Shown piece by piece: positions 1 to 11,753 of a stretch of 12,066 nucleotides of DNA. The position numbers and the translations under genes are program-made. Numbering within the stretch: position 1 is the stretch's first letter; each line of letters begins with the position of its first letter. The notes beneath the pieces were generated by a model. It was not told where the DNA came from. It was given only the letters and a program-made list of their open reading frames with translations, and made no database searches. This DNA is from Candidatus Aenigmatarchaeota archaeon (GTDB lineage: Archaea; Aenigmatarchaeota; Aenigmatarchaeia; Aenigmatarchaeales; Aenigmatarchaeaceae), in the NCBI GenBank assembly GCA_028715225.1, contig JAQUSH010000011.1, forward strand, positions 1-12,066, written 5' to 3'.

Positions 1-530
1 GGAACAGTTGGAACAACTGGCGGTTCAAATACACATTCTCATTCAACAACAATAACAACTGGAACATATACAACTGGAGTTACAAATGCTGTAACTGGTG
101 CTGGGGCATATGCAACAGTTGCACATACACATTCAGGAACTGGAACAAGTAACATAACAAATCAACAGCCGCCATATATAACTATAATTCTTGCAAAAGC
201 TGATACTGATAGAACATTGCCAACTGGTATGATTGGTATGTTTAATGCAACGCCAGGTTCAACACTGTGGGAAATAGTCTCAAGTTCTGGAAAACCATTC
301 TATGAAAAGTTTATTGTTGGTTCTGCAGCTTATGGAACAACTAGCGGATTAAGCACACATACTCATGCAACACTTACAATATCAACTGGTGTGCCTAGCG
401 CAACAGCTACAAACGGAATGACATCAGGATCAAGTCAGGATCTTGTTGGAAGCTCAACGCACACGCATAACATTGGCGTTACTTTCAGCACAGACAATAA
501 CCTGCCACCATACAACAGTGTTATTCTTGG
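1..530 (+). repeat. Two tail-collar-like HxH...PPY repeats
   Basis: Copy 1 (5' truncated) has HSH at 34-42, HTH at 124-132 and NQQPPYI at 160-180. Copy 2 starts near LPTGMIGMF (208-240) and has HTH at 358-366, HTH at 460-468 and NNLPPYNSVIL at 496-528. The second HxH and the PPY are 45 bases apart in both copies; equivalent motifs in the two copies are 108-112 residues apart. GTTGGSNTHSHSTTITTG aligns with GTTSGLSTHTHATLTISTG-like sequence in copy 2. The order (P-T-G-M-I opening, FIVG, HxH, HxH, PPY) resembles phage tail-collar proteins. HxH motifs bind metal in T4 long tail fibre tips. Homology here is judged by eye only. Confidence 0.7.
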
Positions 531-3500
531 TTATGCTTTAGGTCATATTCCACAATGGTCAAACAATAAAACCTCTTTAGCAAGCGGAGTTCAATATAGT
601 TCATCAAATAATTATGGATTTGATATTACATGGACAGATAACCAAAATGATGTTGACAAAGTATTGTTTGAAACAAATCTGACTGGAACTCTACAAAATT
701 TCAGTTCAGCAACGTCACCAGCTGTAACTAACTCAACATACCAATTATTTTACATTAACTTCACAAATACAAACATAACCGGAGCTGGAACATATGTTTT
801 CAAATGGTATGCAAATGATACCTCGAACAACATTAATAATTCAGACCAATGGTATTATACAATCGCAAGAAATACAACAAATACACTTAATCTTTACCTA
901 AATGGAACACAAGCAAATAGAACATACACATACCCCGAATCAGTTAACGCAACAGCAACAGCACAACAAGGAACAGTAAACCTATATAGAAATTCGTCAT
1001 TAGTAATATCTGGTACCTCACCACAATCTGAAAACATTAGACTTTACAATGGAACTCATCAATACTTTGTAAATGCAACTGGAAACACAAACTATAGTGA
1101 CAATACAACCGGAATAGGATATTATGCAATTGTCAATCAGGGAATTGCAAATGTAACACTTTCACTTCTACCAGCTACACCAATTTATTATGGAACGCAA
1201 ACAACAGCAACATGTAATGCAAATGCATATGAAACTTCACCAAATCTTTACAGAAACAACACAAATGCAAACTCTGAAAACAATACAGCAACCACATTAC
1301 CGGCAGGTACATGGACATATGTTTGCAATATATCATCAACCCAAAACTATACTGGAAGCACAACAACCGAATCTTATATAGTAAACAAAGCAGGAACAAA
1401 TATTACACTTTATCTGAACGGAACAGCATGGACAAACGATTGGTCAATAACGTATCCAAATGCAACAAATATCAATGCAACAGCAAACGTTTCAGGAATT
1501 CAATCATCTGTATTGCTATACCGAAACGAATCAGCTCAATCAAACCCAGATCAAATTATGCTTGGAGCATCATCTTATAATTATACTGGATACTTTGATG
1601 GAAATGAAAACTATACGACATCAAACACAACAAGATATCTAACGATTAATCAAAACACATCAACTGCTACTTTGATGAATATAACATTCAATGGAACAGA
1701 AGGAAACAATTCAACAACTTATCCAGCTGGAACAAATGTAACAGGATATTTCAGTTCAATAATTTCTGGGCAGACAATTACATTTACTTTATACAAAAAT
1801 AGTAGCGTACTTGGAATAACAAATCCAATAACCGAAATAAATCAAAGCGCGGCAGGTTACTATATTTACACATACAGCACAGCTGGAAATGCAAACTTCT
1901 CAGCTGCTTCAAAATCATATAATCTTACAATAAACAAAGCGAACAACCCAATTAATCTTTATCTAAACGGAACACAGGCAAATAAAATTTATACTTATCC
2001 TGAATCGATTAACGCAACAGCAACATCAACTGGAGGAACAATTAGCTTAACTAGAAATGGAACATCATATGCAACATGCATAGCAACTCGTTGCTACGAG
2101 TATGTAAGTCTTGGAAACGGAACATATGAATTCAATACAACTGCAACTGGAGATGAAAATTATACTGACAATTCAACAACAGTATCATATTATGCTTACA
2201 TTGCAAAAGGATCAACTACAACATATCTATATCTAAATGGCTCAAGAGCAAACACTGGATATGCAACAAATGATCCTGCAAATTTCACTGCTTCTGTTAA
2301 TCTAAGTGGAGCAACTGTTTACATTGCAGCGAACATAACTGGTTTCACAACTGTATCTGGAATAACACCACTATATAACTATACAACTCTTATCGATAGT
2401 GGTGTCTATAACATAACAGGTTATTATCCTGAAAGTGAAAATTATTCTGCAAGCAGCGAATCTTGGTATGCAACCGTCTCGGGTACTGCAGCACTGACAG
2501 CTAAAATAGATTCTATGTCACCAACTTCAATGAACAAATTAGACAAATCCACTCTTGCTGGAAACTGTACATGCACTGGAGCAACATGTAGTAATACTTA
2601 TGTTGAAATACAAGCTGATGCTTCTCCTATACCTACAGGTACTTCTGGAAACCTGCAAGTAAACGGCTCATCATCATATAGTCTTGGAAATTCATTTTTG
2701 GCTAGCAATTATACTGGATGGAATATAACCGGCCTTAGAAAAGGAACCTATCAGATAAGAGTAATGTGCAATTCAACTGAAACCAGCAGTGTTTATTCAG
2801 TTGCACAGACTCTAACAGTTTTAGATAACACGAGTGCAAACTGGTCAGCAAATCAATCTATCATCGCAGTAAACTATTCATTAACAAATTATTCGCAATT
2901 CAATATCAGCTGGTCAGATGACGAAGATATTCACACTGTATTTATAGAATCAAACTGGACTGGAACAAATACAAATTACACAATGTCTAATGCAACATAT
3001 GGAGGAGCAATTTATAATTACACCTTGATACTTCCAGCTGGAACGTATTACTGGAAATCATATGTAAATGATACATCAAATAATTGGAACACATCTGACA
3101 CGTGGTACTTTACAGTTGGTAAATCAGTTAACTTGGCTTATCTTTACTTGAACGCAACTCAGTCAAATACGATTTATACTTATCCACAGTCAATCAATGC
3201 AACAAGTACGGTAACTGCTGGAACCGCATTGTTATGGAGAAATGGAACAAGCGTAGGTGCAACTGAAGAAAATATCAGATTAGGCAACGGAACATACGAG
3301 TACAAATCAAATACATCTGGTACTGCAAATTATTCTGTCAATGATACAGGGGTTACATATTATGCATATGTTGCAAAGGGAACAACCACAATATATCTTG
3401 CAATAAATGGAACTCAGGGAAATGTTAATTTAGAATACAATGATCCAGCTATGATAAACGCAACTGGATGGAAGACGGTTGACGATGAAACGCTAACACT

Positions 3501-6500
3501 ATACAGAAACGACACAATAATGATAGTATCAACGTCTGGAAATGTGATAACAAACATAACGTCAGAAGATCCAACGGGAGTATACAATTATTCGTTGAAT
3601 ATGTCTAGCTATAATTATACTGCATCATCTGTTGAATGGAATGTTACACTTGGAGATACCGGATATCCAACAGTAACAATAATACTGCCAGAAAACATAA
3701 CATACAACTACAGCACATCAATAGATGTCAATTTTAGTGCATATGATTCTGGAGGACTTAACTGGTGTGGATACTCATTAGACGGCGCAGCAAATCAAAC
3801 TCTATTTGCTTGCCTAAATGAAACCCATGATTTTACAGATGGAAACCACCGTATAACAATATTTGTGAATGATACCTCTGGCAACTCAAACAAATCAGAA
3901 ACCATAAACTTCACAGTTGATACAACCTCGCCGCTAACCACATTAAATCTTCCAGCAAATAATACAAATGTTACACGCCAGAATGTATTATTTAATTTCA
4001 CAACAACTGATGAATTGTCTAACGCAACAAACTGTTCAATAAAAATAAATGATGTTATAAATCTAACAAATTCAACTGTCTATAATAACACATTGACAAA
4101 CTTCTACATAATAGGAATGCCAGAAGGATTATATTATTGGAATATTACTTGCAAAGATTCAGTAAATAATTCAAACACAAGTGAAACAAATGTTCTGCGA
4201 GTAGATTTAACCGGACCATTAGTAGTATCATATGTTCAGACGCCAAATATAAGCGCTGATTTAGATCCTGGCATAACGGTTAATATAACTCATGTAAGCA
4301 TAACAGATTTGTCTAGTATAGATACAGTCATTCTGCAATACAAAACAGACGGAACTGTGGTATGGAATAATCAAACAATGACGCTGAATCAAACATCTGG
4401 ATATTACAATGGATCATTTTCAGCTCCTATTCCAGCTGGATATTGGAATTATAGAATATGGGCAAATGACACATCTGGAAATGCTAATTATTCAGATACA
4501 GCAAACATAAGTGTTGATTATGAAAAAAGCTGGACAATAACTCCAACAACGCTCGGTTCTGTAACAGGTACATTATCACAAACCAAAAGCGTGGGTGAAA
4601 TACTAATAAACAACACCGGTGACTATGAATTATCATTTACTCTTAGCAACGATGCTCCATATGGAATGACATACAATGAAACTGTTCCATTCAATCTTGC
4701 TGCCGGACAAGTAAAATACATAAACATAAGTGCTACATTTGGTACTACAAGCCGTTCAGACAATGCAACCATAACAATAACAACACCAACGCCAGATACA
4801 ACACCGGCATCAGATACAGTTAGTGTAACGCTTGTAACTTATGCGGGAGGGGATTATCTAACTGCTGGAATAGATAAATATAATCTTACTGTAAACCAAA
4901 GCGGAATACTTGATTTGGGTGCATATGTAAAAAATATCGGAAATGAAACTGCAAATCAAACCTGGGTATTATGGACGTTAGCAACCGGAATGTCAAATAC
5001 ATCCGGACTACTTAATGAATCACTTGGCAACTTAACTAGCAGTCTTACAAATACAAGTAATTTAACACTAAGTGTCGGTACAAATACAACAGCTGGATTA
5101 AATACAATAACGATTTATGCTGCATCTGCTGGCTTGACTACAGCAACAGACTCTCTTGTGCTGCAGGTTTACTGCAATAGTAGCGATAGTGTATGCGGAT
5201 CAGGTTGTACGTATTTAACAGATTCTAATTGTGAACAAGAGGTTGTAACTGAAACTGTAACAACACCAAGTGGCAGCACTGGCGGTTTAGGTGGTGGAGG
5301 AGTGAGCGGGACGACAAAAGTCAGTCAGGATACTTGGGAAATGTTAAGAGGAGAATCAAAAACATTTGAGTTACCTGTTAAAAATATCTATGCTGATTCA
5401 GAATTAAAGAATCTTCATTTGAACATATCTGGATTTTTATCTAAATATGTTAAGGTAACACCTGCAACTTTAGACGGAATAAAATATGGCGAAACACAGA
5501 AATTCTATGTAACAATAGATGCTCCTGCTTATTTGGACATACAAAAATACTTAATGACTTTTGAAATACAGGGAACACTTTCAAAGCAAAATGGAACAGT
5601 AGATATTAGTTATGACGATAAAAGATATCTTACATTATTTGTAAGATTAGTTTCAAAGGAGCAGGCTCAAGACGCACTGCTTAAAGTGCAACAGGCTATA
5701 GATGAGCTTGCTAAAGAGAATATACCATATGATAAAATAAATCAGACTCTTACTGAAGCTCTAAAGTATTTTGATGATCAGAATTATGAAAGCGTTAAAG
5801 AACTTACCGATAAAATAATTTCTTCAACTAATGCTGCTATAGAGACAAATAAAATAATTTCACAGATAGAACAATACATAAAGGATGCAGAACTAATGGG
5901 ACTACCTCTAACAGAAACAAAGAATCTGCTTGCTTTGTCCAAGACTGCATTTGATAGAGGAGATTATCAATTAGCATTAACAAGGATACAGGATGCCCTA
6001 GCAGCTTATGCTTTAGAGAGCGGTGGCAAAGTAAATGTATTAAAATTCTTAATTGATTATTGGTGGTTGGCTCTTATTTCAGGCGCACTTATACTTGTGG
6101 GATTGATATTATTTGCTAAACAAGCAACTTTATTTTTGATTAGAAGAAGATTAAGGAATATATCTATTGAGGAGGAATCTGCCTTTAACATGATAAGAGA
6201 TACACAGATGAAGTTTGTAAAGAAGAAACTAACATACAAAAGGTATAGGGATAAGATTGATAAATTTGAGAAAAGGCTAGCCGATTTGAGAGCAGAAAGA
6301 TCAAGCTTAGAAACTAAAAGAAGAGGAGTTATCAAGGCTTCCAAAGAACTTCAGATACTTCATGAAGAAAATGTTCAGATAAATAAATTAATACGCAATC
6401 TGCAAGATCAATACTATAATAAAAGAACAATTGGTTCAGAAGCATACCATAAAAGAATGGAAGAATATAGAATAAAGAAAACTGATGCCGAGGAACAATT

Positions 6501-6615
6501 GGCTTTGGTTGAAGCCAAATTAACTGGAAACGTAATGCTAAAAGATATTTTCAAAATAAGAAAAGAGAAAATTAAGAAAAAGAATTCAAAACAAGTTAAG
6601 AGGAGAAGAAAATGA
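1..6615 (+). CDS. Giant membrane-anchored surface protein with tail-collar-like and Ig-like repeats (5' partial)
   Basis: The frame is open from base 1, so the start lies upstream; at least 2204 residues are present. In order: two repeats with paired HxH and PPY motifs (1-530), resembling phage tail-collar/tail-fibre tips; about a dozen Ig-like beta repeats (about 550-4530); further beta domains (4531-5172); a Cys-containing patch and Gly-rich linker (5173-5310); a beta domain (about 5320-5650); an Ala/Leu-rich helical stalk (5656-6030); one membrane helix (about 6046-6120); and a Lys/Arg/Glu-rich coiled-coil tail. Sequons (NxS/T) are extremely dense up to the stalk: about 40 in the 570 residues from base 217 by hand count. 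That fits an N-glycosylated exterior with the tail inside the cell. Likely role is adhesion or recognition at the cell surface, which is inference. Its stop overlaps the next start (ATGA). The ectodomain is Thr/Asn-rich and poor in Lys, Arg and Glu; the tail is the reverse. The coding frame is certain, the function is not. Confidence 0.93.
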   Translation, partial: GTVGTTGGSNTHSHSTTITTGTYTTGVTNAVTGAGAYATVAHTHSGTGTSNITNQQPPYITIILAKADTDRTLPTGMIGMFNATPGSTLWEIVSSSGKPFYEKFIVGSAAYGTTSGLSTHTHATLTISTGVPSATATNGMTSGSSQDLVGSSTHTHNIGVTFSTDNNLPPYNSVILGYALGHIPQWSNNKTSLASGVQYSSSNNYGFDITWTDNQNDVDKVLFETNLTGTLQNFSSATSPAVTNSTYQLFYINFTNTNITGAGTYVFKWYANDTSNNINNSDQWYYTIARNTTNTLNLYLNGTQANRTYTYPESVNATATAQQGTVNLYRNSSLVISGTSPQSENIRLYNGTHQYFVNATGNTNYSDNTTGIGYYAIVNQGIANVTLSLLPATPIYYGTQTTATCNANAYETSPNLYRNNTNANSENNTATTLPAGTWTYVCNISSTQNYTGSTTTESYIVNKAGTNITLYLNGTAWTNDWSITYPNATNINATANVSGIQSSVLLYRNESAQSNPDQIMLGASSYNYTGYFDGNENYTTSNTTRYLTINQNTSTATLMNITFNGTEGNNSTTYPAGTNVTGYFSSIISGQTITFTLYKNSSVLGITNPITEINQSAAGYYIYTYSTAGNANFSAASKSYNLTINKANNPINLYLNGTQANKIYTYPESINATATSTGGTISLTRNGTSYATCIATRCYEYVSLGNGTYEFNTTATGDENYTDNSTTVSYYAYIAKGSTTTYLYLNGSRANTGYATNDPANFTASVNLSGATVYIAANITGFTTVSGITPLYNYTTLIDSGVYNITGYYPESENYSASSESWYATVSGTAALTAKIDSMSPTSMNKLDKSTLAGNCTCTGATCSNTYVEIQADASPIPTGTSGNLQVNGSSSYSLGNSFLASNYTGWNITGLRKGTYQIRVMCNSTETSSVYSVAQTLTVLDNTSANWSANQSIIAVNYSLTNYSQFNISWSDDEDIHTVFIESNWTGTNTNYTMSNATYGGAIYNYTLILPAGTYYWKSYVNDTSNNWNTSDTWYFTVGKSVNLAYLYLNATQSNTIYTYPQSINATSTVTAGTALLWRNGTSVGATEENIRLGNGTYEYKSNTSGTANYSVNDTGVTYYAYVAKGTTTIYLAINGTQGNVNLEYNDPAMINATGWKTVDDETLTLYRNDTIMIVSTSGNVITNITSEDPTGVYNYSLNMSSYNYTASSVEWNVTLGDTGYPTVTIILPENITYNYSTSIDVNFSAYDSGGLNWCGYSLDGAANQTLFACLNETHDFTDGNHRITIFVNDTSGNSNKSETINFTVDTTSPLTTLNLPANNTNVTRQNVLFNFTTTDELSNATNCSIKINDVINLTNSTVYNNTLTNFYIIGMPEGLYYWNITCKDSVNNSNTSETNVLRVDLTGPLVVSYVQTPNISADLDPGITVNITHVSITDLSSIDTVILQYKTDGTVVWNNQTMTLNQTSGYYNGSFSAPIPAGYWNYRIWANDTSGNANYSDTANISVDYEKSWTITPTTLGSVTGTLSQTKSVGEILINNTGDYELSFTLSNDAPYGMTYNETVPFNLAAGQVKYINISATFGTTSRSDNATITITTPTPDTTPASDTVSVTLVTYAGGDYLTAGIDKYNLTVNQSGILDLGAYVKNIGNETANQTWVLWTLATGMSNTSGLLNESLGNLTSSLTNTSNLTLSVGTNTTAGLNTITIYAASAGLTTATDSLVLQVYCNSSDSVCGSGCTYLTDSNCEQEVVTETVTTPSGSTGGLGGGGVSGTTKVSQDTWEMLRGESKTFELPVKNIYADSELKNLHLNISGFLSKYVKVTPATLDGIKYGETQKFYVTIDAPAYLDIQKYLMTFEIQGTLSKQNGTVDISYDDKRYLTLFVRLVSKEQAQDALLKVQQAIDELAKENIPYDKINQTLTEALKYFDDQNYESVKELTDKIISSTNAAIETNKIISQIEQYIKDAELMGLPLTETKNLLALSKTAFDRGDYQLALTRIQDALAAYALESGGKVNVLKFLIDYWWLALISGALILVGLILFAKQATLFLIRRRLRNISIEEESAFNMIRDTQMKFVKKKLTYKRYRDKIDKFEKRLADLRAERSSLETKRRGVIKASKELQILHEENVQINKLIRNLQDQYYNKRTIGSEAYHKRMEEYRIKKTDAEEQLALVEAKLTGNVMLKDIFKIRKEKIKKKNSKQVKRRRK
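553..3663 (+). repeat. Tandem Ig-like repeat array (A and B types)
   Basis: Two repeat types are visible in translation. A-type units (553-867 and 2830-3120) share TW/SW-[ST]-D-[DN], a V-x-F/I-E-[ST]-N-x-TG strand and an ending like NDTSNN-x-N-x-SD-x-WY. B-type units of about 85-95 residues open with LYLNGTQ-x-N, continue with YTYP-[EQ]-S-[VI]-NAT and end in YYAY/YYAI. The clearest B copies are 871-1140, 1945-2211 and 3121-3381; diverged copies lie at 1141-1398, 1396-1660, 1660-1945, 2212-2484 and 3382-3663. An A-B pair occurs twice (553-1140 and 2830-3381), so the array probably grew by both unit and block duplication. Bases 888-960 and 1953-2025 match at 61 of 73 positions by hand alignment, with only three residue changes. 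Confidence 0.75.
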
Positions 6616-7391
6616 AAAAAATATTTGCATTCATATTTGTACTTTTGCTTACTTCAACTGTTTTTGCACAGACATATGATGAGGCTCTTAATGCTATAAA
6701 TTCAGCTGAAAATGATATTCAAGATATGATTGATGCTAACCTTTCTGCTGCATATGTTTCTGATATATTGATTGTTGCCAAAGATGCTTTAACATCTAAG
6801 AAATATGATGTTGTAATACAAAAGGCAGAAATAATTGCAGAACGAAAGAATAAAGCTTTTGAGATTAGTGATATACTATTATCGCTTAATATGAGAATAA
6901 GCGAGGATTTCTCTCAAGGGATAGGTGTTGCGACTGCTAATGAAACTTATAATTTAGCATTGATTGAATTCAAAAATGAAAATTATGACAGAGCAAATAT
7001 GTACATAGATCAGACATACACAGAACTTAATGACGCAGAAGCCTATACTAGTCTTGTTAGGGCAAGAGCTGTGAGTCTTAGAAACAACATATTTTATTTC
7101 ATTATTGATAACTGGAAACAAATATTTATTGGTTCCTTAATAACTTTAAGTGTTGGATTTGTTTTGTATAGGAGATATTATCGAATTTATCTAAAAAGAA
7201 AAATAGAGAATTATGTAAAAAGAAAAAGAATGATAAATCGATTGATTAAAAAGGCGCAGGAAGATCGATACAATAAAAAGATACTTTCGGTTGATACATA
7301 CAAACTAAAAATTAATCAATACAAAGAAAAAGAATCTGAAATAGAAAATACAATAAACATTTTACGCAGTAAACTAAGAAGATTCCATTAA
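6612..7391 (+). CDS. Small secreted-helical, single-span membrane protein paralogous to the end of the giant protein
   Basis: 259 residues. Starts by a 4-base ATGA overlap with the upstream gene and has AGGAG at 6601-6605, so the two are translationally coupled. A signal peptide covers residues 1-19 (MKKIFAFIFV... ending VFA|QT). An all-helical ectodomain (about 21-160) contains two hairpin-like repeats with a [KN]-x-x-[YK]YD motif (around 63-72 and 121-132). A membrane helix spans about 168-186, followed by a basic tail (187-259) with predicted coiled coil. Stalk, membrane segment (IDNW versus IDYW entry) and tail align by eye with the C-terminal part of the giant protein: tail residues 215-255 match the translation of 6400-6522. 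It may associate with the giant protein through the stalk or tail; that is inference. I recognise no named family. Confidence 0.88.
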   Translation: MKKIFAFIFVLLLTSTVFAQTYDEALNAINSAENDIQDMIDANLSAAYVSDILIVAKDALTSKKYDVVIQKAEIIAERKNKAFEISDILLSLNMRISEDFSQGIGVATANETYNLALIEFKNENYDRANMYIDQTYTELNDAEAYTSLVRARAVSLRNNIFYFIIDNWKQIFIGSLITLSVGFVLYRRYYRIYLKRKIENYVKRKRMINRLIKKAQEDRYNKKILSVDTYKLKINQYKEKESEIENTINILRSKLRRFH

Positions 7392-8344
7392 GATTCCATG
7401 TCTCCGAAAACTTCCTGCTCAGGATATACAACAATTCCATTATCCATGATTTGGAATGCTACTATTTTTTCTTGATGTTTTGCTCCACGCAATTTCAGTA
7501 TTTCTATTGCTCTTTCTCTAGAGTTACCGTGTTTAATGTAATAAAATACAATTACCCCATCTGCCATGAATTCCTCCGTCATGCTCTTAGCAAGTTCTAC
7601 AATTTCTGTTATTAAGAAGGTTGTTGTTTTGAATTTTTGAAAGAAATTAAATAATTGTTCGATATACATTCTATAGCTCTCTTCTTTTCCAACAAATGCT
7701 GATGCGATTGCAGATAGAGAATCAATGACTATCCTGTCTGGCTTAAATCCTTTAGGCATTTCTATAGGTTCAACATCAATCATAAGTTCTCCTTTGGATT
7801 GTTCCATAAGCGCTTCAACAGAACGTGTGACATCAAAAGGATTGAGTTTTTTTATTTGGAGAACCCCCTTTTTAATCAGTTCATCAGGATTCCAGCCAAA
7901 ATCTCTCATATGCTGCTTTAAACGTTCTTCAGATTCTTCAAATGTGATGTATAAGCATTTTTCTCCTTTTTTAGCAGCATTTGCAAGCATCTGCAGGCAA
8001 AATATCGTTTTACCTGTACCAGGTCCGCCTACTACAAGAACAGATAATCCTTTAGGTATGCCATGTTCAGTCAATTCATCAAATCCTTCTATGCCAGTTT
8101 TAATCCAATTGGTATGTAAAATTTTTTCATTTTTTATTTTAGCATGATTCTTTATTTTATTTCTGTTATTTTTGAATTCTGCTAATGTAACAGGATTTTC
8201 AGGAAGTTTTGATCCTTTCATTTTTTCTTCTATTCTTTTTCTGATTAATTCCATCTCATTGTTTTTAGGAGTTTCCTTGATTTTAGAATTTTTAATAATC
8301 TTTTTTGATTTAGAAGTTTTAATGATTCTCTTTATCTTCTTCAT
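7388..8344 (-). CDS. KaiC-like RecA-superfamily ATPase
   Basis: 318 residues from ATG at 8344. After a Lys-rich, probably disordered N-terminus (1-70), a single KaiC-type domain begins near ILHTNWIKTGIEGFDELTE. Visible motifs: Walker A GGPGTGKT (106-113), paired glutamates after the second strand in TFEESEE (E136, E137), Walker B strand RIVIDSLSAI (D208), and the KaiC-family motif KLRGAKHQ near 284-291, followed by a strand ending GIVVYPE. All catalytic elements are present, so it should bind and hydrolyse ATP and probably form a ring, as KaiC relatives do. Such single-domain archaeal proteins are mostly uncharacterised and tend to act in signalling or motility. The upstream TTG at 8410 would add 22 residues but would place a strong TATA box inside the gene, so ATG 8344 is preferred. 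It diverges from an operon with a degenerate relative and converges tail-to-tail with 6612-7391, sharing the bases TTAA. Confidence 0.92.
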   Translation of the reverse strand: MKKIKRIIKTSKSKKIIKNSKIKETPKNNEMELIRKRIEEKMKGSKLPENPVTLAEFKNNRNKIKNHAKIKNEKILHTNWIKTGIEGFDELTEHGIPKGLSVLVVGGPGTGKTIFCLQMLANAAKKGEKCLYITFEESEERLKQHMRDFGWNPDELIKKGVLQIKKLNPFDVTRSVEALMEQSKGELMIDVEPIEMPKGFKPDRIVIDSLSAIASAFVGKEESYRMYIEQLFNFFQKFKTTTFLITEIVELAKSMTEEFMADGVIVFYYIKHGNSRERAIEILKLRGAKHQEKIVAFQIMDNGIVVYPEQEVFGDMES

Positions 8345-8388
8345 ACATATAATTCTCTTGCTTTTGTTAATAAAGCTTACCCAAGTAA

Positions 8389-8398
8389 TATTTATAAG
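8389..8398. promoter_or_regulatory. Shared TATA element of a divergent promoter
   Basis: On the minus strand these bases read CTTATAAATA; on the plus strand they read TATTTATAAG, with palindromic core TTATAA. The element centre (about 8394) lies 50 bases from the first base of ATG 8344 on one side and 50 bases from TTG 8444 on the other. With the usual archaeal spacing of about 25 bases from TATA box to transcription start, each direction would give a leader of about 25 bases. A second plus-strand candidate, AGTATATTTA at 8411-8420, would instead give a nearly leaderless transcript. Bidirectional use is inference. Confidence 0.6.
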
Positions 8399-8432
8399 CA
8401 GGCCAATCAAAGTATATTTATCATAATTTGAT

Positions 8433-8438
8433 AGGGTG
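8433..8438 (+). promoter_or_regulatory. Shine-Dalgarno site supporting a TTG start
   Basis: AGGGTG lies five bases before TTG at 8444 and contains the GGTG core common in archaeal ribosome binding sites. It is the main reason for accepting the TTG start of the next gene. Confidence 0.6.
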
Positions 8439-8443
8439 TCTTA

Positions 8444-8989
8444 TTGGCAAGCATAACAAAAGATTTTCATGATGTAAAAAAAGGAGATTCCGTGCTTCTT
8501 CTGGCTAATTCTAAGAACTATGCTTCTGACAATGTGAATGTGGTTAAACATTTTTCATCAAAACGCTATAAAGGCATCTATGTTACAGTAAACAGACCGT
8601 ATGAAAACATAAGAGCAATGCTAAAACAGAAAAATGTGAACATGGACTCAATGTATTTCATTGATATGATTAGTAGAAAGAGCAATCTTGAGGCTACTGA
8701 TGAAAGATGCATATATGTTAATTCACCAGAAAGCCTTACTGGAACAGGCATCGCTCTTGAACAGATAGCTAAGACTGTAAGAGGAGACAAATTCATATAT
8801 TTGGATTCATTGTCAACGCTGTTAACATACAATCCAAAGCAGACAGTTCTGAAATTTGCGCATTTCCTAGCAACAAAAACAAGGGAATGGAATGTAGTTG
8901 GCATAGTCATTTCGTTGAAAAATCAAACAGACAAAAATATGCTGTCACAATTGACGCAATTTTTTGATAAGGTGATTGAGGAGAAATAA
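8444..8989 (+). CDS. Walker-A-less RecA/KaiC-like protein
   Basis: 181 residues from a TTG start with an AGGGTG site. The fold looks like one RecA/KaiC domain. GDSVLLLANSKNY (14-26) sits where the P-loop should be but has no GxxxxGK[ST]. KGIYVTVNRPYENIRAML (43-60) aligns with the strand of KaiC-like proteins that normally carries the two catalytic glutamates (compare CLYITFEESEERL in the divergent neighbour), with N50 and R51 instead. A Walker-B-like strand FIYLDSLSTLL (117-127, D121) remains, and a helix and strand follow (WNVVGIVISL). It is therefore probably a non-hydrolysing pseudo-ATPase and could partner or regulate the active KaiC-like protein across the shared promoter. It is the first gene of a tightly packed operon with membrane proteins. 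It may belong to one of the archaeal DUFs of degenerate KaiC homologues; I cannot say which. Confidence 0.85.
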   Translation: MASITKDFHDVKKGDSVLLLANSKNYASDNVNVVKHFSSKRYKGIYVTVNRPYENIRAMLKQKNVNMDSMYFIDMISRKSNLEATDERCIYVNSPESLTGTGIALEQIAKTVRGDKFIYLDSLSTLLTYNPKQTVLKFAHFLATKTREWNVVGIVISLKNQTDKNMLSQLTQFFDKVIEEK

Positions 8990-8990
8990 T

Positions 8991-9323
8991 ATGGAGATAT
9001 ATACTATATTTGGTATCATATCGTGGATTCTGATAGTTGTTGCTTTAGTTATCTTTGCAAATGCCACATTCAGATTTGCGAAAGGAAGTGATTGCTCAAA
9101 GGTGTTCTTTTCAATTCTGGCCGCACTTCTATTTATGGCCATCCCTTATACAATGTTCATAATAAGAGATCGAGAGATTATTTTATATTTTCATACAGAG
9201 ATAAGTTATCTGATATATCTATTTATGATAATAGTCGCAATATTCTTTTTGAAGGCTGCAAAAAATCTAGAGGAGTTTTCAAAGAGATATTCCTTTAATA
9301 TTTCGGATAGGAGGAGAAAGTAA
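8991..9323 (+). CDS. Three-helix membrane protein, paralogue 1
   Basis: 110 residues. ATG at 8991 follows the previous stop by one base and is preceded by GAGGAG at 8978-8983 with a 7-base spacer; the in-frame TTG at 8976 overlaps that site and is unlikely to be the start. Helices at about residues 6-27, 37-58 and 69-88. A basic loop after helix 1 (FRFAKGSDCSK) and a C-terminus of SKRYSFNISDRRRK suggest, by the positive-inside rule, that the first loop and the tail face the cytoplasm. The next two genes have the same plan: helix, F-x-K-[GS]-x-[FC]-x-K loop, helix ending I-R, short outside loop, helix, then S-x-x-Y. No known family recognised; likely a receptor, anchor or channel-like subunit acting with the KaiC-like proteins (inference). 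Confidence 0.87.
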   Translation: MEIYTIFGIISWILIVVALVIFANATFRFAKGSDCSKVFFSILAALLFMAIPYTMFIIRDREIILYFHTEISYLIYLFMIIVAIFFLKAAKNLEEFSKRYSFNISDRRRK

Positions 9324-9662
9324 ATGGCATTATCATTCCCACCACCACTTTATCAGGAAATAATCATAATATTAACACTTTTAGTTTTAGTATTTGCAAT
9401 GTCTTATTCTATAACTTCATACAGAAGATTTACAAAAGGAGATTTCAAAAAATGCCTTTTCTACTACATATTGGCTGGAAATTTTGTTGGCATATCATTT
9501 ATAGTTAGAAGTTTGGGCCTTATTACAAATATCGAACCAGTATTTTTCAGAACGATAGATCATATTATATATGCATTTGCAATAGTAATCGCATTATATG
9601 CTGTCTGGAATACCTATCAAATATCAAACAGATATTCAATTGATAAGAGGAGAAAATTATGA
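9324..9662 (+). CDS. Three-helix membrane protein, paralogue 2
   Basis: 112 residues. The ATG directly follows the previous stop codon; AGGAGGAGA at 9310-9318 is the ribosome site. Helices at about 11-30, 43-66 and 77-97. The family loop is RRFTKGDFKK (34-43), helix 2 runs into VRSLG (61-65), and a polar segment IEPVFFRTIDH precedes helix 3. The tail QISNRYSIDKRRKL closely echoes the SKRYS...RRRK tail of the preceding protein. The charged residues next to and within the membrane segments (R62, E71, R76, D79) are conserved in position in at least one other member, suggesting a functional interface. Part of the 8444-10848 operon. Confidence 0.87.
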   Translation: MALSFPPPLYQEIIIILTLLVLVFAMSYSITSYRRFTKGDFKKCLFYYILAGNFVGISFIVRSLGLITNIEPVFFRTIDHIIYAFAIVIALYAVWNTYQISNRYSIDKRRKL

Positions 9663-10018
9663 TTGATCTAAATTTAATTCATGCAATACTAGATTGGATA
9701 CTTATTATAAGCTTACCAATAGAAACAATCATTTTGTTGTTCGTTTATTCAAATTTTTTCAAATCAGAATTCAAGGAAAAGATACTGAAATATGGTTTCT
9801 ATGCATACTTTTCATTTCATTTTTCATATACAATTAGAGCTTTAAATCATATTTACTTTATGAGTGAATCTATAAGAACGTTTGATATGATGACATTTTT
9901 AATAGCAATGATATTTGCAGTCATATTTTCAAGCAATATTTACAAATTTTCAGAGAATTACGGATTTGTTACATGCGAAACTACAGAAAAATTAAATAAA
10001 TGGGTGGAGAAATTTTAG
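9659..10018 (+). CDS. Three-helix membrane protein, paralogue 3
   Basis: 119 residues. ATG overlaps the previous stop by four bases (ATGA); GAGGAG at 9647-9652 is the ribosome site. Helices at about 10-30, 42-62 and 74-94. It keeps the family pattern in weaker form: loop NFFKSEFKEK (32-41), helix 2 ending TIRAL (58-62), S-I-R-T-F-D before helix 3 (compare F-R-T-I-D in paralogue 2), and KFSENYGF after it. The tail is longer and acidic/polar rather than Arg-rich, so its cytoplasmic contact may differ from that of the other two. Its end overlaps a weak alternative start of the next gene, but not the preferred one. Confidence 0.87.
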   Translation: MIDLNLIHAILDWILIISLPIETIILLFVYSNFFKSEFKEKILKYGFYAYFSFHFSYTIRALNHIYFMSESIRTFDMMTFLIAMIFAVIFSSNIYKFSENYGFVTCETTEKLNKWVEKF

Positions 10019-10022
10019 GTGA
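10017..10022 (+). promoter_or_regulatory. Shine-Dalgarno site deciding a GTG start
   Basis: AGGTGA overlaps the stop codon of the previous gene and lies four bases before GTG at 10027. No comparable site precedes the in-frame ATG at 10000, so the GTG is the better start for the eight-helix protein. Confidence 0.65.
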
Positions 10023-10026
10023 TAAC

Positions 10027-10848
10027 GTGAAAAATAATTTTATTAAGGAAAATTCGACATTTTTGCCAATATTGATAATGCTATTGTTTTTAGGATATAT
10101 ATTCTATGCATATCATATAGAAATAACGACAAATCTAGGAATAGAAAAAACATATGGGCTGCTATGCTTATCGCTTATATCAGCAGTGTTGCTGATAACA
10201 ACTGGTGCATTTTTGCTATGGAGATGGATTAAGTCTAATGATAAAACAACACTTATATGGAGCATATCATTTTTGTTATATTCGGTTACATTTATCGGTT
10301 TGATATTCAAATCATTAGGATTTTCATGGGCAAATGATAAAATCCCTGAAATATTCTTCTTCTTCAGGCAATTTATGATAATTTGGGTAGCCGGAATGAT
10401 TTATGGTTTGTATAATATACTGAAAGACAGAAAGAAAACTTACCAAAGTTGGCTGTTTAGAATATTAGCATCTTTAATAATTATAGCAGGTTATGCGTGG
10501 TTTTATTATAATCTTATTTTAAATGCCACCGTTGCTGATGTTGCAATACACACAACCATGCTAGGTTTCATTAATTTCATGTTTGTACCAGCATGCGTAA
10601 TAATATCGTATCTGTTCTTGAAATTTGGCAAAACAGAAGGCATTAAATCAATTAGAATTATAGGTTTTGGATTTTTGATTCTTGCGATTTCATACATGCT
10701 ATGGGCTCCATTTCATGATGATGTATTCTACTTTATATGCTATTCAGTGTTTGTTTTATCTTTAATATGCATACTCATCGGATTTGTGTTACTGGCCTCG
10801 GAAAAATATAGAATTTTTTACAACAAAAACACTTCAATGACAATATAA
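10027..10848 (+). CDS. Eight-helix integral membrane protein, possible doubled module
   Basis: 273 residues from GTG at 10027 (SD AGGTGA); ATG at 10000 would add nine residues and overlap the previous gene by 19 bases without a ribosome site. About eight hydrophobic segments are seen, starting near residues 10, 36, 71, 102, 137, 166, 203 and 228. Two internal stretches resemble the small three-helix neighbours: the first half has a RWIKSNDKT loop, a helix ending in FKSLG, a polar PEIFFFFRQF and a helix ending YGLYNI; the second half has KFGKTEGIKS, a long helix, then FHDDVFYF and a helix ending ASEKY. This suggests fusion and duplication of the same module, judged by eye. It is the last gene of the operon. 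Role unknown: sensor, transporter-like or scaffold are all possible. There are no recognisable histidine-kinase or GPCR-type motifs. Confidence 0.85.
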   Translation: MKNNFIKENSTFLPILIMLLFLGYIFYAYHIEITTNLGIEKTYGLLCLSLISAVLLITTGAFLLWRWIKSNDKTTLIWSISFLLYSVTFIGLIFKSLGFSWANDKIPEIFFFFRQFMIIWVAGMIYGLYNILKDRKKTYQSWLFRILASLIIIAGYAWFYYNLILNATVADVAIHTTMLGFINFMFVPACVIISYLFLKFGKTEGIKSIRIIGFGFLILAISYMLWAPFHDDVFYFICYSVFVLSLICILIGFVLLASEKYRIFYNKNTSMTI

Positions 10849-11195: not shown

Positions 11196-11753
11196 ATGGT
11201 AAGTAACAACATATTAGCTGGTTTAGTTGCAGTTGTACTAGTTTTATCCGTAGTATCGATAGGCTCAACAATGAGTCTTATCGGAGGAGCTAGCGGTGCA
11301 ACAGGATTAGCTATAGGAACAGCACAGGTTTCTGTGCCAGCAAAAGTTGCAATTTCATTGCCAGTAAGTGCAATAGATTTTGGCAACATGGATATAAACG
11401 AAGTAAATGACACAACAGATGGCAGTCCAGCAGCATTTCAAGTACAGAATGATGGAAGTGTATCTGTAAATATAACAGTAGGAGCAACTGACATGTGGGC
11501 AGGAACTGGAGCAACAAACCCATCAAGCTATTATGAGTTTGCATGCGGTTCTGGAGAAGTTGCTTGCGGAGCAGGATCAGTAACGTCTCTTACAAACATG
11601 CCAGCAACAGCATCACCTGTTTTAGCTATAGCAAATCTAGGACACACAAATTCAGCTGATCAGGTTGAATTAGACATAGGAGTTACTGTGCCAGGCGACG
11701 AACCAGCAGGTTCTAAAAGCTCTACAGTAACTTTCACAGCAAGCCAGGCATAA
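11196..11753 (+). CDS. N-terminally anchored beta-domain surface protein
   Basis: 185 residues; AAGGAGGT (11181-11188) overlaps the previous stop and sits 7 bases before the ATG. A hydrophobic segment (about 5-29, SNNILAGLVAVVLVLS...) matches the anchor of the 72-residue protein. A Gly/Ala/Ser-rich linker follows, then a beta-rich domain (about 45-185): VSVPAKVAISLP, AIDFGNMD, FQVQNDGSVSVNITV, a short C117-C124 loop that may be a disulfide, and a terminal PAGSKSSTVTFTAS strand typical of secreted beta-sandwich proteins. Sequons NDT and NIT are present. The FGxx plus VQNDGSVSV pattern recalls secreted domains encoded beside the kind of protein that starts at 11801. Probably a surface or pilus-like subunit, co-transcribed with 10964-11182; the exact family is not recognised. 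Confidence 0.85.
   Translation: MVSNNILAGLVAVVLVLSVVSIGSTMSLIGGASGATGLAIGTAQVSVPAKVAISLPVSAIDFGNMDINEVNDTTDGSPAAFQVQNDGSVSVNITVGATDMWAGTGATNPSSYYEFACGSGEVACGAGSVTSLTNMPATASPVLAIANLGHTNSADQVELDIGVTVPGDEPAGSKSSTVTFTASQA

What the first reader, a model, noticed from the sequence alone, without database searches (positions are those of the whole stretch)
7388..10848. Candidate system: KaiC-like ATPase, a P-loop-less KaiC-like partner and four related membrane proteins
A KaiC-like ATPase with every catalytic motif diverges from an operon that starts with a KaiC-like protein lacking Walker A and the catalytic glutamates and continues with four multi-helix membrane proteins. Active/inactive ATPase pairs often form regulated hetero-complexes. 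Pairing them with a paralogous membrane family suggests a membrane-coupled switch or sensor that I do not recognise as described.
Basis: partly seen in the sequence, partly recalled or inferred. Interest (0 to 1): 0.72.

Follow-up and report, generated by a model that had tools for sequence, protein, structure and literature searches.

The report
Membrane-anchored inactive KaiC signalling module
An archaeal operon pairs a KaiC-like protein that has lost its ATP-binding loop with small three-helix membrane proteins; this pairing recurs in several archaeal lineages and sometimes lies beside a working KaiC ATPase, which suggests a membrane input to archaeal KaiC signalling.

Summary
Kai (7388-8344, minus) is a complete KaiC-type ATPase. 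psK (8444-8989, plus) has the KaiC fold but no P-loop, no paired glutamates and no K-x-R-G-x-x-H. M1-M3 are paralogous three-helix membrane proteins; M4 is an unrelated eight-helix protein, so 'four related' is wrong. Main result: psK and M form a two-gene module found in many archaeal lineages. 38 of 80 psK genes are followed at once by a small membrane protein, against 19 of 780 other genes; 31 of 35 M-model hits in 27 genomes, and 6 of 6 hits outside the training set, lie directly after psK. M has no Pfam family, a basic loop with a conserved G and a G-F tail. The link to active KaiC is real but looser: a psK lies within 2 kb of 10 of 34 orthologues of this Kai; some KaiC lies near 10 of 11 M-linked psK loci in Woesearchaeota/Nanoarchaeota but only 3 of 22 elsewhere; five relatives have this Kai and no psK match. 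Kai is more often beside a coiled-coil surface-protein gene (19 of 34). Inactive KaiC in archaeal signalling is described; the dedicated membrane partner family appears new, though the founding paper could not be read. Physical interaction is inferred, not shown.

The parts
7388..8344 (-). Kai: active KaiC-family ATPase (318 aa from ATG 8344; the ORF opens at TTG 8410), Lys/Arg-rich N-terminal extension
   Evidence: PF06745 7.3e-56; all four motifs present; extension longer than 30 aa in 20 of 28 orthologues in which it could be delimited, mean 32% Lys/Arg
8006..8029 (-). Walker A of Kai, GGPGTGKT
8345..8443 (.). divergent intergenic region; TATA-like tttataag at 8391-8398 toward psK, by eye
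   Evidence: sequence; the TATA assignment is recalled consensus, not tested
8444..8989 (+). psK: pseudo-KaiC (iKaiC, DUF7504), 181 aa, TTG start
   Evidence: DUF7504 5.5e-12; KaiC fold; no P-loop, paired Glu or KxRGxxH
8991..9323 (+). M1: 3-TM partner protein (ORF opens at TTG 8976)
   Evidence: M-family model 2.0e-22, itself in the training set; SD GGAG 8980-8983
9324..9662 (+). M2: 3-TM paralogue
   Evidence: M-family model 1.1e-22, in the training set; M1-M2 1.7e-6
9659..10018 (+). M3: 3-TM paralogue with canonical YGF tail; model pLDDT 88.8, three long helices plus a C-terminal helix 106-118
   Evidence: M-family model 9.3e-20, in the training set; AlphaFold2
10000..10848 (+). M4: 8-TM protein (hydropathy count), not of the M family, overlaps M3 by 19 bases
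   Evidence: 2 distant homologues in the protein database; no other convincing match in 156 phylum genomes; no relation to M
217..6615 (+). Big: surface protein with Ig-like repeats, C-terminal TM and a charged tail read by eye as a cytoplasmic coiled coil; the frame is open from base 1, so its start may lie off the contig
   Evidence: Big_13 below cut-off, 2.6e-4; C-terminal relatives beside Kai orthologues
6612..7391 (+). Cc: short relative of the Big C-terminus (signal peptide, helical region, TM, charged tail, by eye); its stop overlaps that of Kai
   Evidence: Cc-Big 5e-9; Big or Cc relative within 2 kb of 19 of 34 Kai orthologues

Best explanation
psK and M are one membrane-bound unit. 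The small M protein crosses the membrane three times and offers a Lys/Arg-rich loop and a G-F tail on the cytoplasmic side, to which psK, a KaiC core without an active site, docks. psK relays the state of M to an active KaiC, in this window Kai, by binding or capping its ring and so changing its nucleotide state. Kai in turn works with the cytoplasmic tails of the surface proteins Big and Cc. Shown: conserved gene order, co-inheritance, absence of the active site, fold, conserved motifs in basic segments. Inferred: the psK-M complex (about 0.75), the psK-Kai contact (about 0.5), the Kai-Big/Cc link (about 0.5), direction of the signal (unknown).
For: psK is followed within 60 bp by a small multi-TM gene in 38 of 80 cases against 19 of 780 other genes (relatives not removed). 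Reverse: 31 of 35 M-model hits in 27 genomes lie in runs directly after psK; most of these were in the training set. Outside the training set: 6 of 6 new M hits in the phylum lie directly downstream of psK. The 4 M genes found in the own genome follow psK. psK and M distances correlate, Mantel r 0.77 (46 pairs) and 0.35 (27 non-redundant), 0 of 2000 permutations as high. M: G in 35 of 42 (loop), G 39 and F 38 of 42 (tail), both in Lys/Arg-rich segments. One psK (P0026, L124, 400 aa) carries two strongly hydrophobic segments before its DUF7504 domain and lies beside a KaiC gene: a psK anchored in one chain, by a different membrane part. Kai link; psK, two 3-TM genes and Kai form one co-directional run in L040, and Big, Cc, Kai, psK and M recur together in L148, another family. 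KaiC proteins with P-loop but without the paired Glu adjoin the Kai orthologue (L129/L152, L150, L177), in L150 and L152 with a 3-TM gene between.
Against: No interaction was tested. Kai orthologues occur in five relatives with no psK match. Outside Woesearchaeota/Nanoarchaeota 19 of 22 M-linked loci have no KaiC within 3 kb; the three-M relative L038 has none in its 15 kb. Within the fetched loci the local controls are weak: other genes more than 4 kb from Kai have a psK within 2 kb in 27 of 108 cases, close to the 10 of 34 for Kai, and 199 of 780 non-psK genes have KaiC within 3 kb against 39 of 80 psK; those loci were partly fetched because they hold psK. The 3-TM genes of L040, L150, L152 and L154 are not recognised by the M model. 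Without the KaiC C-terminus psK may not enter a KaiC ring.
Confidence: 0.5

Rival explanations
1. Two separate units that happen to be neighbours: Kai belongs with the Big/Cc surface proteins, and psK-M is an independent membrane module with another, unlinked partner.
For: Big or Cc within 2 kb of 19 of 34 Kai orthologues (7 of 108 for other genes of the same loci) but psK within 2 kb of only 10 (27 of 108 for other genes); the stops of Cc and Kai overlap or nearly meet in the window, L047 and L056; Kai without psK in five relatives; 19 of 22 M-linked loci outside Woesearchaeota/Nanoarchaeota without KaiC within 3 kb.
Against: Random placement would give about 1 of 34 Kai orthologues a psK within 2 kb; KaiC within 3 kb of M-linked psK in 6 of 23 genomes against 1.16 expected; 10 of 11 M-linked Woesearchaeota/Nanoarchaeota loci; the co-directional run in L040 and the full set in L148.
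Confidence: 0.3
2. psK is an adaptor of two-component signalling; the M proteins replace the membrane part of a histidine kinase, and the output goes through response regulators, not KaiC.
For: In other Aenigmatarchaeota psK abuts PAS proteins or HisKA_7TM histidine kinases and CheY-like regulators; one psK is fused to a receiver domain and one to CBS domains (L048).
Against: No histidine kinase or receiver among the Pfam matches listed for the window. None of 42 M proteins is listed for HisKA_7TM (first 25 of 53 families shown). KaiC often stands in the same clusters.
Confidence: 0.2
3. An archaellum or type IV pilus accessory: Kai is an ArlH-like assembly regulator and M a membrane platform part.
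For: Own-genome KaiC on C60 lies beside pilin-like and multi-TM genes (by eye); L141 has psK-M beside KaiC and a T2SSF platform gene; KaiC ATPases associated with archaeal pili are described (PMC4858521, passages).
Against: Kai scores 53.5 bits for ArlH against a cut-off of 215; no secretion ATPase or T2SSF among the Pfam matches listed for the window (for Kai 25 of 28 shown); no T2SSF listed for M (25 of 53 shown).
Confidence: 0.1

Closest known systems
Archaeal KaiC-like ATPases with inactivated KaiC (iKaiC) domains as signalling hubs (Makarova, Galperin, Koonin 2017; not held, known here from citations and recall)
   Same: Active KaiC and inactivated KaiC in signalling; iKaiC, DUF835 and MEDS listed as output domains of response regulators (PMC5847659, passages)
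   Different: Here the inactive KaiC is a stand-alone protein bound genetically to a 3-TM family with its own conserved motifs; whether the 2017 paper lists that family could not be checked
DUF7504 (PF24336) / DUF7090 (PF23365)
   Same: psK scores above both cut-offs
   Different: Pfam gives no function; no held paper names either
ArlH (FlaH) of the archaellum
   Same: RecA/KaiC fold and membrane-associated machinery; FlaH is the top Foldseek match of psK
   Different: The solved FlaH holds ATP (title) while psK has no P-loop; no archaellum genes seen in the window; Kai is far below the ArlH cut-off
HisKA_7TM histidine kinases
   Same: In some relatives they occupy the place near psK
   Different: M proteins have 3 TM and no kinase domain

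Membership tests
KaiC-family ATPase (Kai) | PF06745 over cut-off | tested here: met
   189.5 bits, cut-off 26.6
KaiC-family ATPase (Kai) | Walker A, paired catalytic Glu, Walker B, K-x-R-G-x-x-H | tested here: met
   all four found
KaiC-family ATPase (Kai) | hexameric ATPase or kinase activity | not testable with these tools
   needs protein
KaiC-family ATPase (psK) | P-loop | tested here: not met
   absent in the window protein and in 99 of 99 proteins classed as psK
Inactivated KaiC / DUF7504 (psK) | PF24336 over cut-off | tested here: met
   46.9 bits, cut-off 27
Inactivated KaiC / DUF7504 (psK) | KaiC/RecA fold | tested here: met
ArlH | NCBIfam ArlH equivalog cut-off (Kai) | tested here: not met
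   53.5 bits, cut-off 215
Archaellum or type IV pilus locus | secretion ATPase and T2SSF platform in the locus | tested here: not met
   no such Pfam match listed for 10 window proteins (Kai list shows 25 of 28); the contig ends at the window, so genes beyond it are unseen
Two-component system | histidine kinase and receiver in the locus | tested here: not met
   none listed in the window; present beside psK in relatives
Any Pfam family for M1-M3 | match over a curated cut-off | tested here: not met
   M1-M3: best 0.014, 2.2 and 0.4, all below cut-off; of 42 family members the most-matched Pfam family reaches 4 (best 2.3e-4), the lowest E listed is 4.2e-5 in one member (25 of 53 families shown, cut-offs not shown there)
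Known fold for M3 | significant match among solved structures | tested here: inconclusive
   best Foldseek E 3.7; short helical bundles match poorly
Circadian KaiABC | KaiA/KaiB partners | not tested
   no search for KaiA or KaiB was made beyond the window's Pfam scan

The most novel reading that the evidence does not exclude
M is the founding member of a widespread archaeal family of minimal transmembrane receptors whose role is to hold and switch an ATPase-dead KaiC, which then gates active KaiC rings: a signalling pathway from membrane to KaiC that uses neither histidine kinases nor KaiA/KaiB. P-loop-bearing relatives without the paired glutamates, beside the Kai orthologue (L129/L152, L150, L177), would be living intermediates of the decay from ATPase to adaptor.
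Probability: 0.35. Interest if true: 0.78.

Novelty: new variant of a known kind. Interest (0 to 1): 0.55.

Why it matters
KaiC-like ATPases are numerous in archaea (217 KaiC matches in the 27 genomes). [quoted passage not shown] A conserved inactive KaiC with its own membrane protein is a concrete candidate for a membrane input, found also outside DPANN (ANME-2/Methanoperedens, Altiarchaeota), and testable by co-expression.

Tried and rejected
M4 as a fourth paralogue: rejected. Defence system: no PADLOC match for psK or M1-M4 at E 0.01; Kai has five matches, best mad8 at 1.5e-8, read by me as generic P-loop similarity. RNA elements: no Rfam match at gathering thresholds; tRNA: none. M as a known family: Pfam, PDB sequence and Foldseek searches found nothing convincing. 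A known-filament identity for the secreted protein at 11196: no Pfam or PDB sequence match. Local background for Kai-psK distance: given under evidence against; I rely more on the genome-wide expectations, which assume random placement; the KaiC list was truncated and counts were copied by hand, and assumes 2 to 5 psK per 0.8 Mb. Co-folding of psK with M or Kai was not attempted: the structure tool takes one protein. Fold search of psK lists many RecA-like families; families not listed are not excluded. psK-M fusions: in 16 regions fetched for this and for more psK copies no ORF matched both models; one psK (L124) is fused to another hydrophobic part with a weak, sub-threshold bPH_3 match.
Full report

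The membrane proteins. M1 (8991-9323), M2 and M3 are paralogues. Together with genes found beside psK elsewhere, 45 of 48 form one linked group at phmmer E below 1e-3; the two L040 proteins and one of L041 stay outside. No Pfam family fits and no solved structure matches the M3 model (pLDDT 88.8: three long helices and a C-terminal helix). Across 42 members the first loop is rich in Lys/Arg and often reads [KR]-[LF]-[ST]-K-G (G in 35 of 42), and the tail carries [FY]-G-F (G 39, F 38 of 42); the second loop is not basic. By the positive-inside rule (established knowledge) both motifs face the cytoplasm, where psK must be. M4 (10000-10848) is a different eight-helix protein: it does not match M, its only other hit in 156 genomes of the phylum is interrupted by stops, and it has two distant relatives in the protein database.

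psK and M form one module. One scan of named genomes gave 46 psK loci from Micrarchaeota, Diapherotrites, Nanoarchaeota, Woesearchaeota, Aenigmatarchaeota, Altiarchaeota, Parvarchaeota, Methanoperedens/ANME-2, Baldrarchaeota, Thermoplasmatales and others; 33 of the 46 have an M match by psK (the model was trained on most of these). In the pooled loci 38 of 80 psK genes with a downstream gene in hand are followed within 60 bp by a small multi-TM gene, against 19 of 780 other genes (relatives not removed, TM by a simple hydropathy rule). In reverse, a model of M found 35 hits in 24 of 27 genomes; 31 lie in runs directly after psK. Of the other four, two are at the start of a contig, one lies in a frame overlapped by another ORF, one is a true orphan. 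Most of these hits were in the model's training set. The cleaner test is the phylum search: 10 of 156 genomes have M (16 hits), and the six hits that were in no training set (G106, G107, G151, two in G167, G171) all lie directly downstream of psK (in L145 the M frame was passed over by my ORF caller and is known from the six-frame hit). psK and M distances correlate (r 0.77 over 46 pairs, 0.35 over 27 non-redundant ones, 0 of 2000 permutations as high). No ORF with both a psK and an M match was seen, but one psK (P0026 in L124, 400 aa) carries two strongly hydrophobic segments and a sub-threshold bPH_3 match before its DUF7504 domain and lies beside a KaiC gene: membrane anchoring of psK in a single chain.

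The link to active KaiC. In the 23 of 27 genomes with an M-linked psK, a KaiC lies within 3 kb in 6, where 1.16 are expected from KaiC number and genome size (P 0.0007; the KaiC list was cut, so 6 is a lower bound). It is strong in Woesearchaeota and Nanoarchaeota: of 12 loci so titled 11 have KaiC within 3 kb of psK and 11 have M (10 both), and in 6 of 12 KaiC diverges from psK as in this window; of the other 34 loci 22 have M, 11 have KaiC within 3 kb and only 3 both. In G080 and G067 every KaiC found at E 1e-12 (1 and 2) stands near psK-M. Orthologues of this Kai were found in 37 of 156 phylum genomes (39 matches); in the 34 analysed (5 were partial, not fetched or not recovered as ORFs; several others lie near a contig end, so the counts are lower bounds) psK lies within 2 kb in 10, a Big/Cc relative in 19, either in 25, both in 4. 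Random placement of 5 psK in 0.8 Mb would give about 1 of 34. A local control speaks less clearly: genes of the same loci more than 4 kb from Kai have psK within 2 kb in 27 of 108 cases and Big/Cc in 7 of 108; some of these loci were fetched because they hold psK clusters. Likewise 39 of 80 psK but also 199 of 780 other genes of the pooled loci have KaiC within 3 kb. The set Big, Cc, Kai, psK, M recurs complete in L148, a genome of another family; L040 has psK, two 3-TM genes and Kai as one co-directional run; L154 has psK and a 3-TM gene beside Kai; the 3-TM genes of L040 and L154 are not matched by the M model. In L150 and L152 a KaiC-like protein with P-loop but without the paired glutamates is followed by a 3-TM gene (no M match) and then by Kai; a similar protein adjoins Kai in L177 (motifs by eye in sequences). 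These look like intermediates between KaiC and psK. Against an obligate pair: G001, G005, G028, G034 and G040 have Kai but no psK match; the bins are incomplete.

Other surroundings. psK is not always with M: in other Aenigmatarchaeota it abuts PAS proteins or HisKA_7TM histidine kinases and receiver proteins, and one copy is fused to a receiver. Big and Cc have a large or small outer part, a membrane helix near the end and a charged, coiled-coil-like tail (tail by eye); they accompany Kai more faithfully than psK does.

How it probably works. M is the membrane part, psK its docked adaptor, and psK acts on an active KaiC, here Kai, which works with the tails of Big/Cc. The first step rests on strong genetic linkage; the second on looser linkage; the third on linkage of Kai with Big/Cc. 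No direction of signal is shown. The main rivals are two unrelated neighbouring units (0.3) and a two-component adaptor (0.2).

What is known. Inactivated KaiC domains in archaeal signalling are described (PMC5847659, passages), KaiC association with pili too (PMC4858521, passages), and a KaiC homologue, CirA, affects shape and motility in Haloferax (PMC13286277, passages). The founding hub paper (mBio 2017) is not held, so I cannot say that M is absent from it. A search for DUF7504, DUF7090, inactivated KaiC or HTR-like protein gave three papers, of which PMC5847659 is the relevant one, and no paper with either DUF name. Searches for KaiC with DPANN, lineage, DUF835 or operon terms listed nothing titled on such a partner (15 of 6,240 shown; 15 of 130; 12 of 12; 2 of 2; listings only). 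I therefore call it a new variant of a known kind.

Noticed in passing
window 11196-11753 and L037 9709-10293: Both psK-M loci of this genome stand in the same direction as copies of one secreted protein (37% identical) for which the window copy has no Pfam or PDB sequence match; a shared output or target is possible.
   Followed up: partly
window 217-7391; L047, L148, L171, L172, L173: A large surface protein with a C-terminal membrane helix and charged tail, paired with a short relative (Cc), recurs beside one KaiC class; 19 of 34 Kai orthologues have such a gene within 2 kb.
   Followed up: partly
L129, L150, L152, L177: KaiC-like proteins with a P-loop but without the paired catalytic glutamates stand beside the Kai orthologue; possible intermediates between KaiC and DUF7504.
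   Followed up: partly
L124 1615-2817 (P0026): A 400-aa protein joins two hydrophobic segments and a weak bacterial-PH-like match to a DUF7504 domain, next to a KaiC gene.
   Followed up: partly
genome G081 (record of locus L096, Altiarchaeales WOR_SM1_SCG): 16 psK-model matches in one 2.5 Mb genome but only one M match: a possible lineage expansion of inactive KaiC.
   Followed up: no
L048 3026-4015 and 10332-11288: psK fused to CBS domains and psK fused to a receiver domain in one genome (the psK part of the second by the psK model).
   Followed up: no
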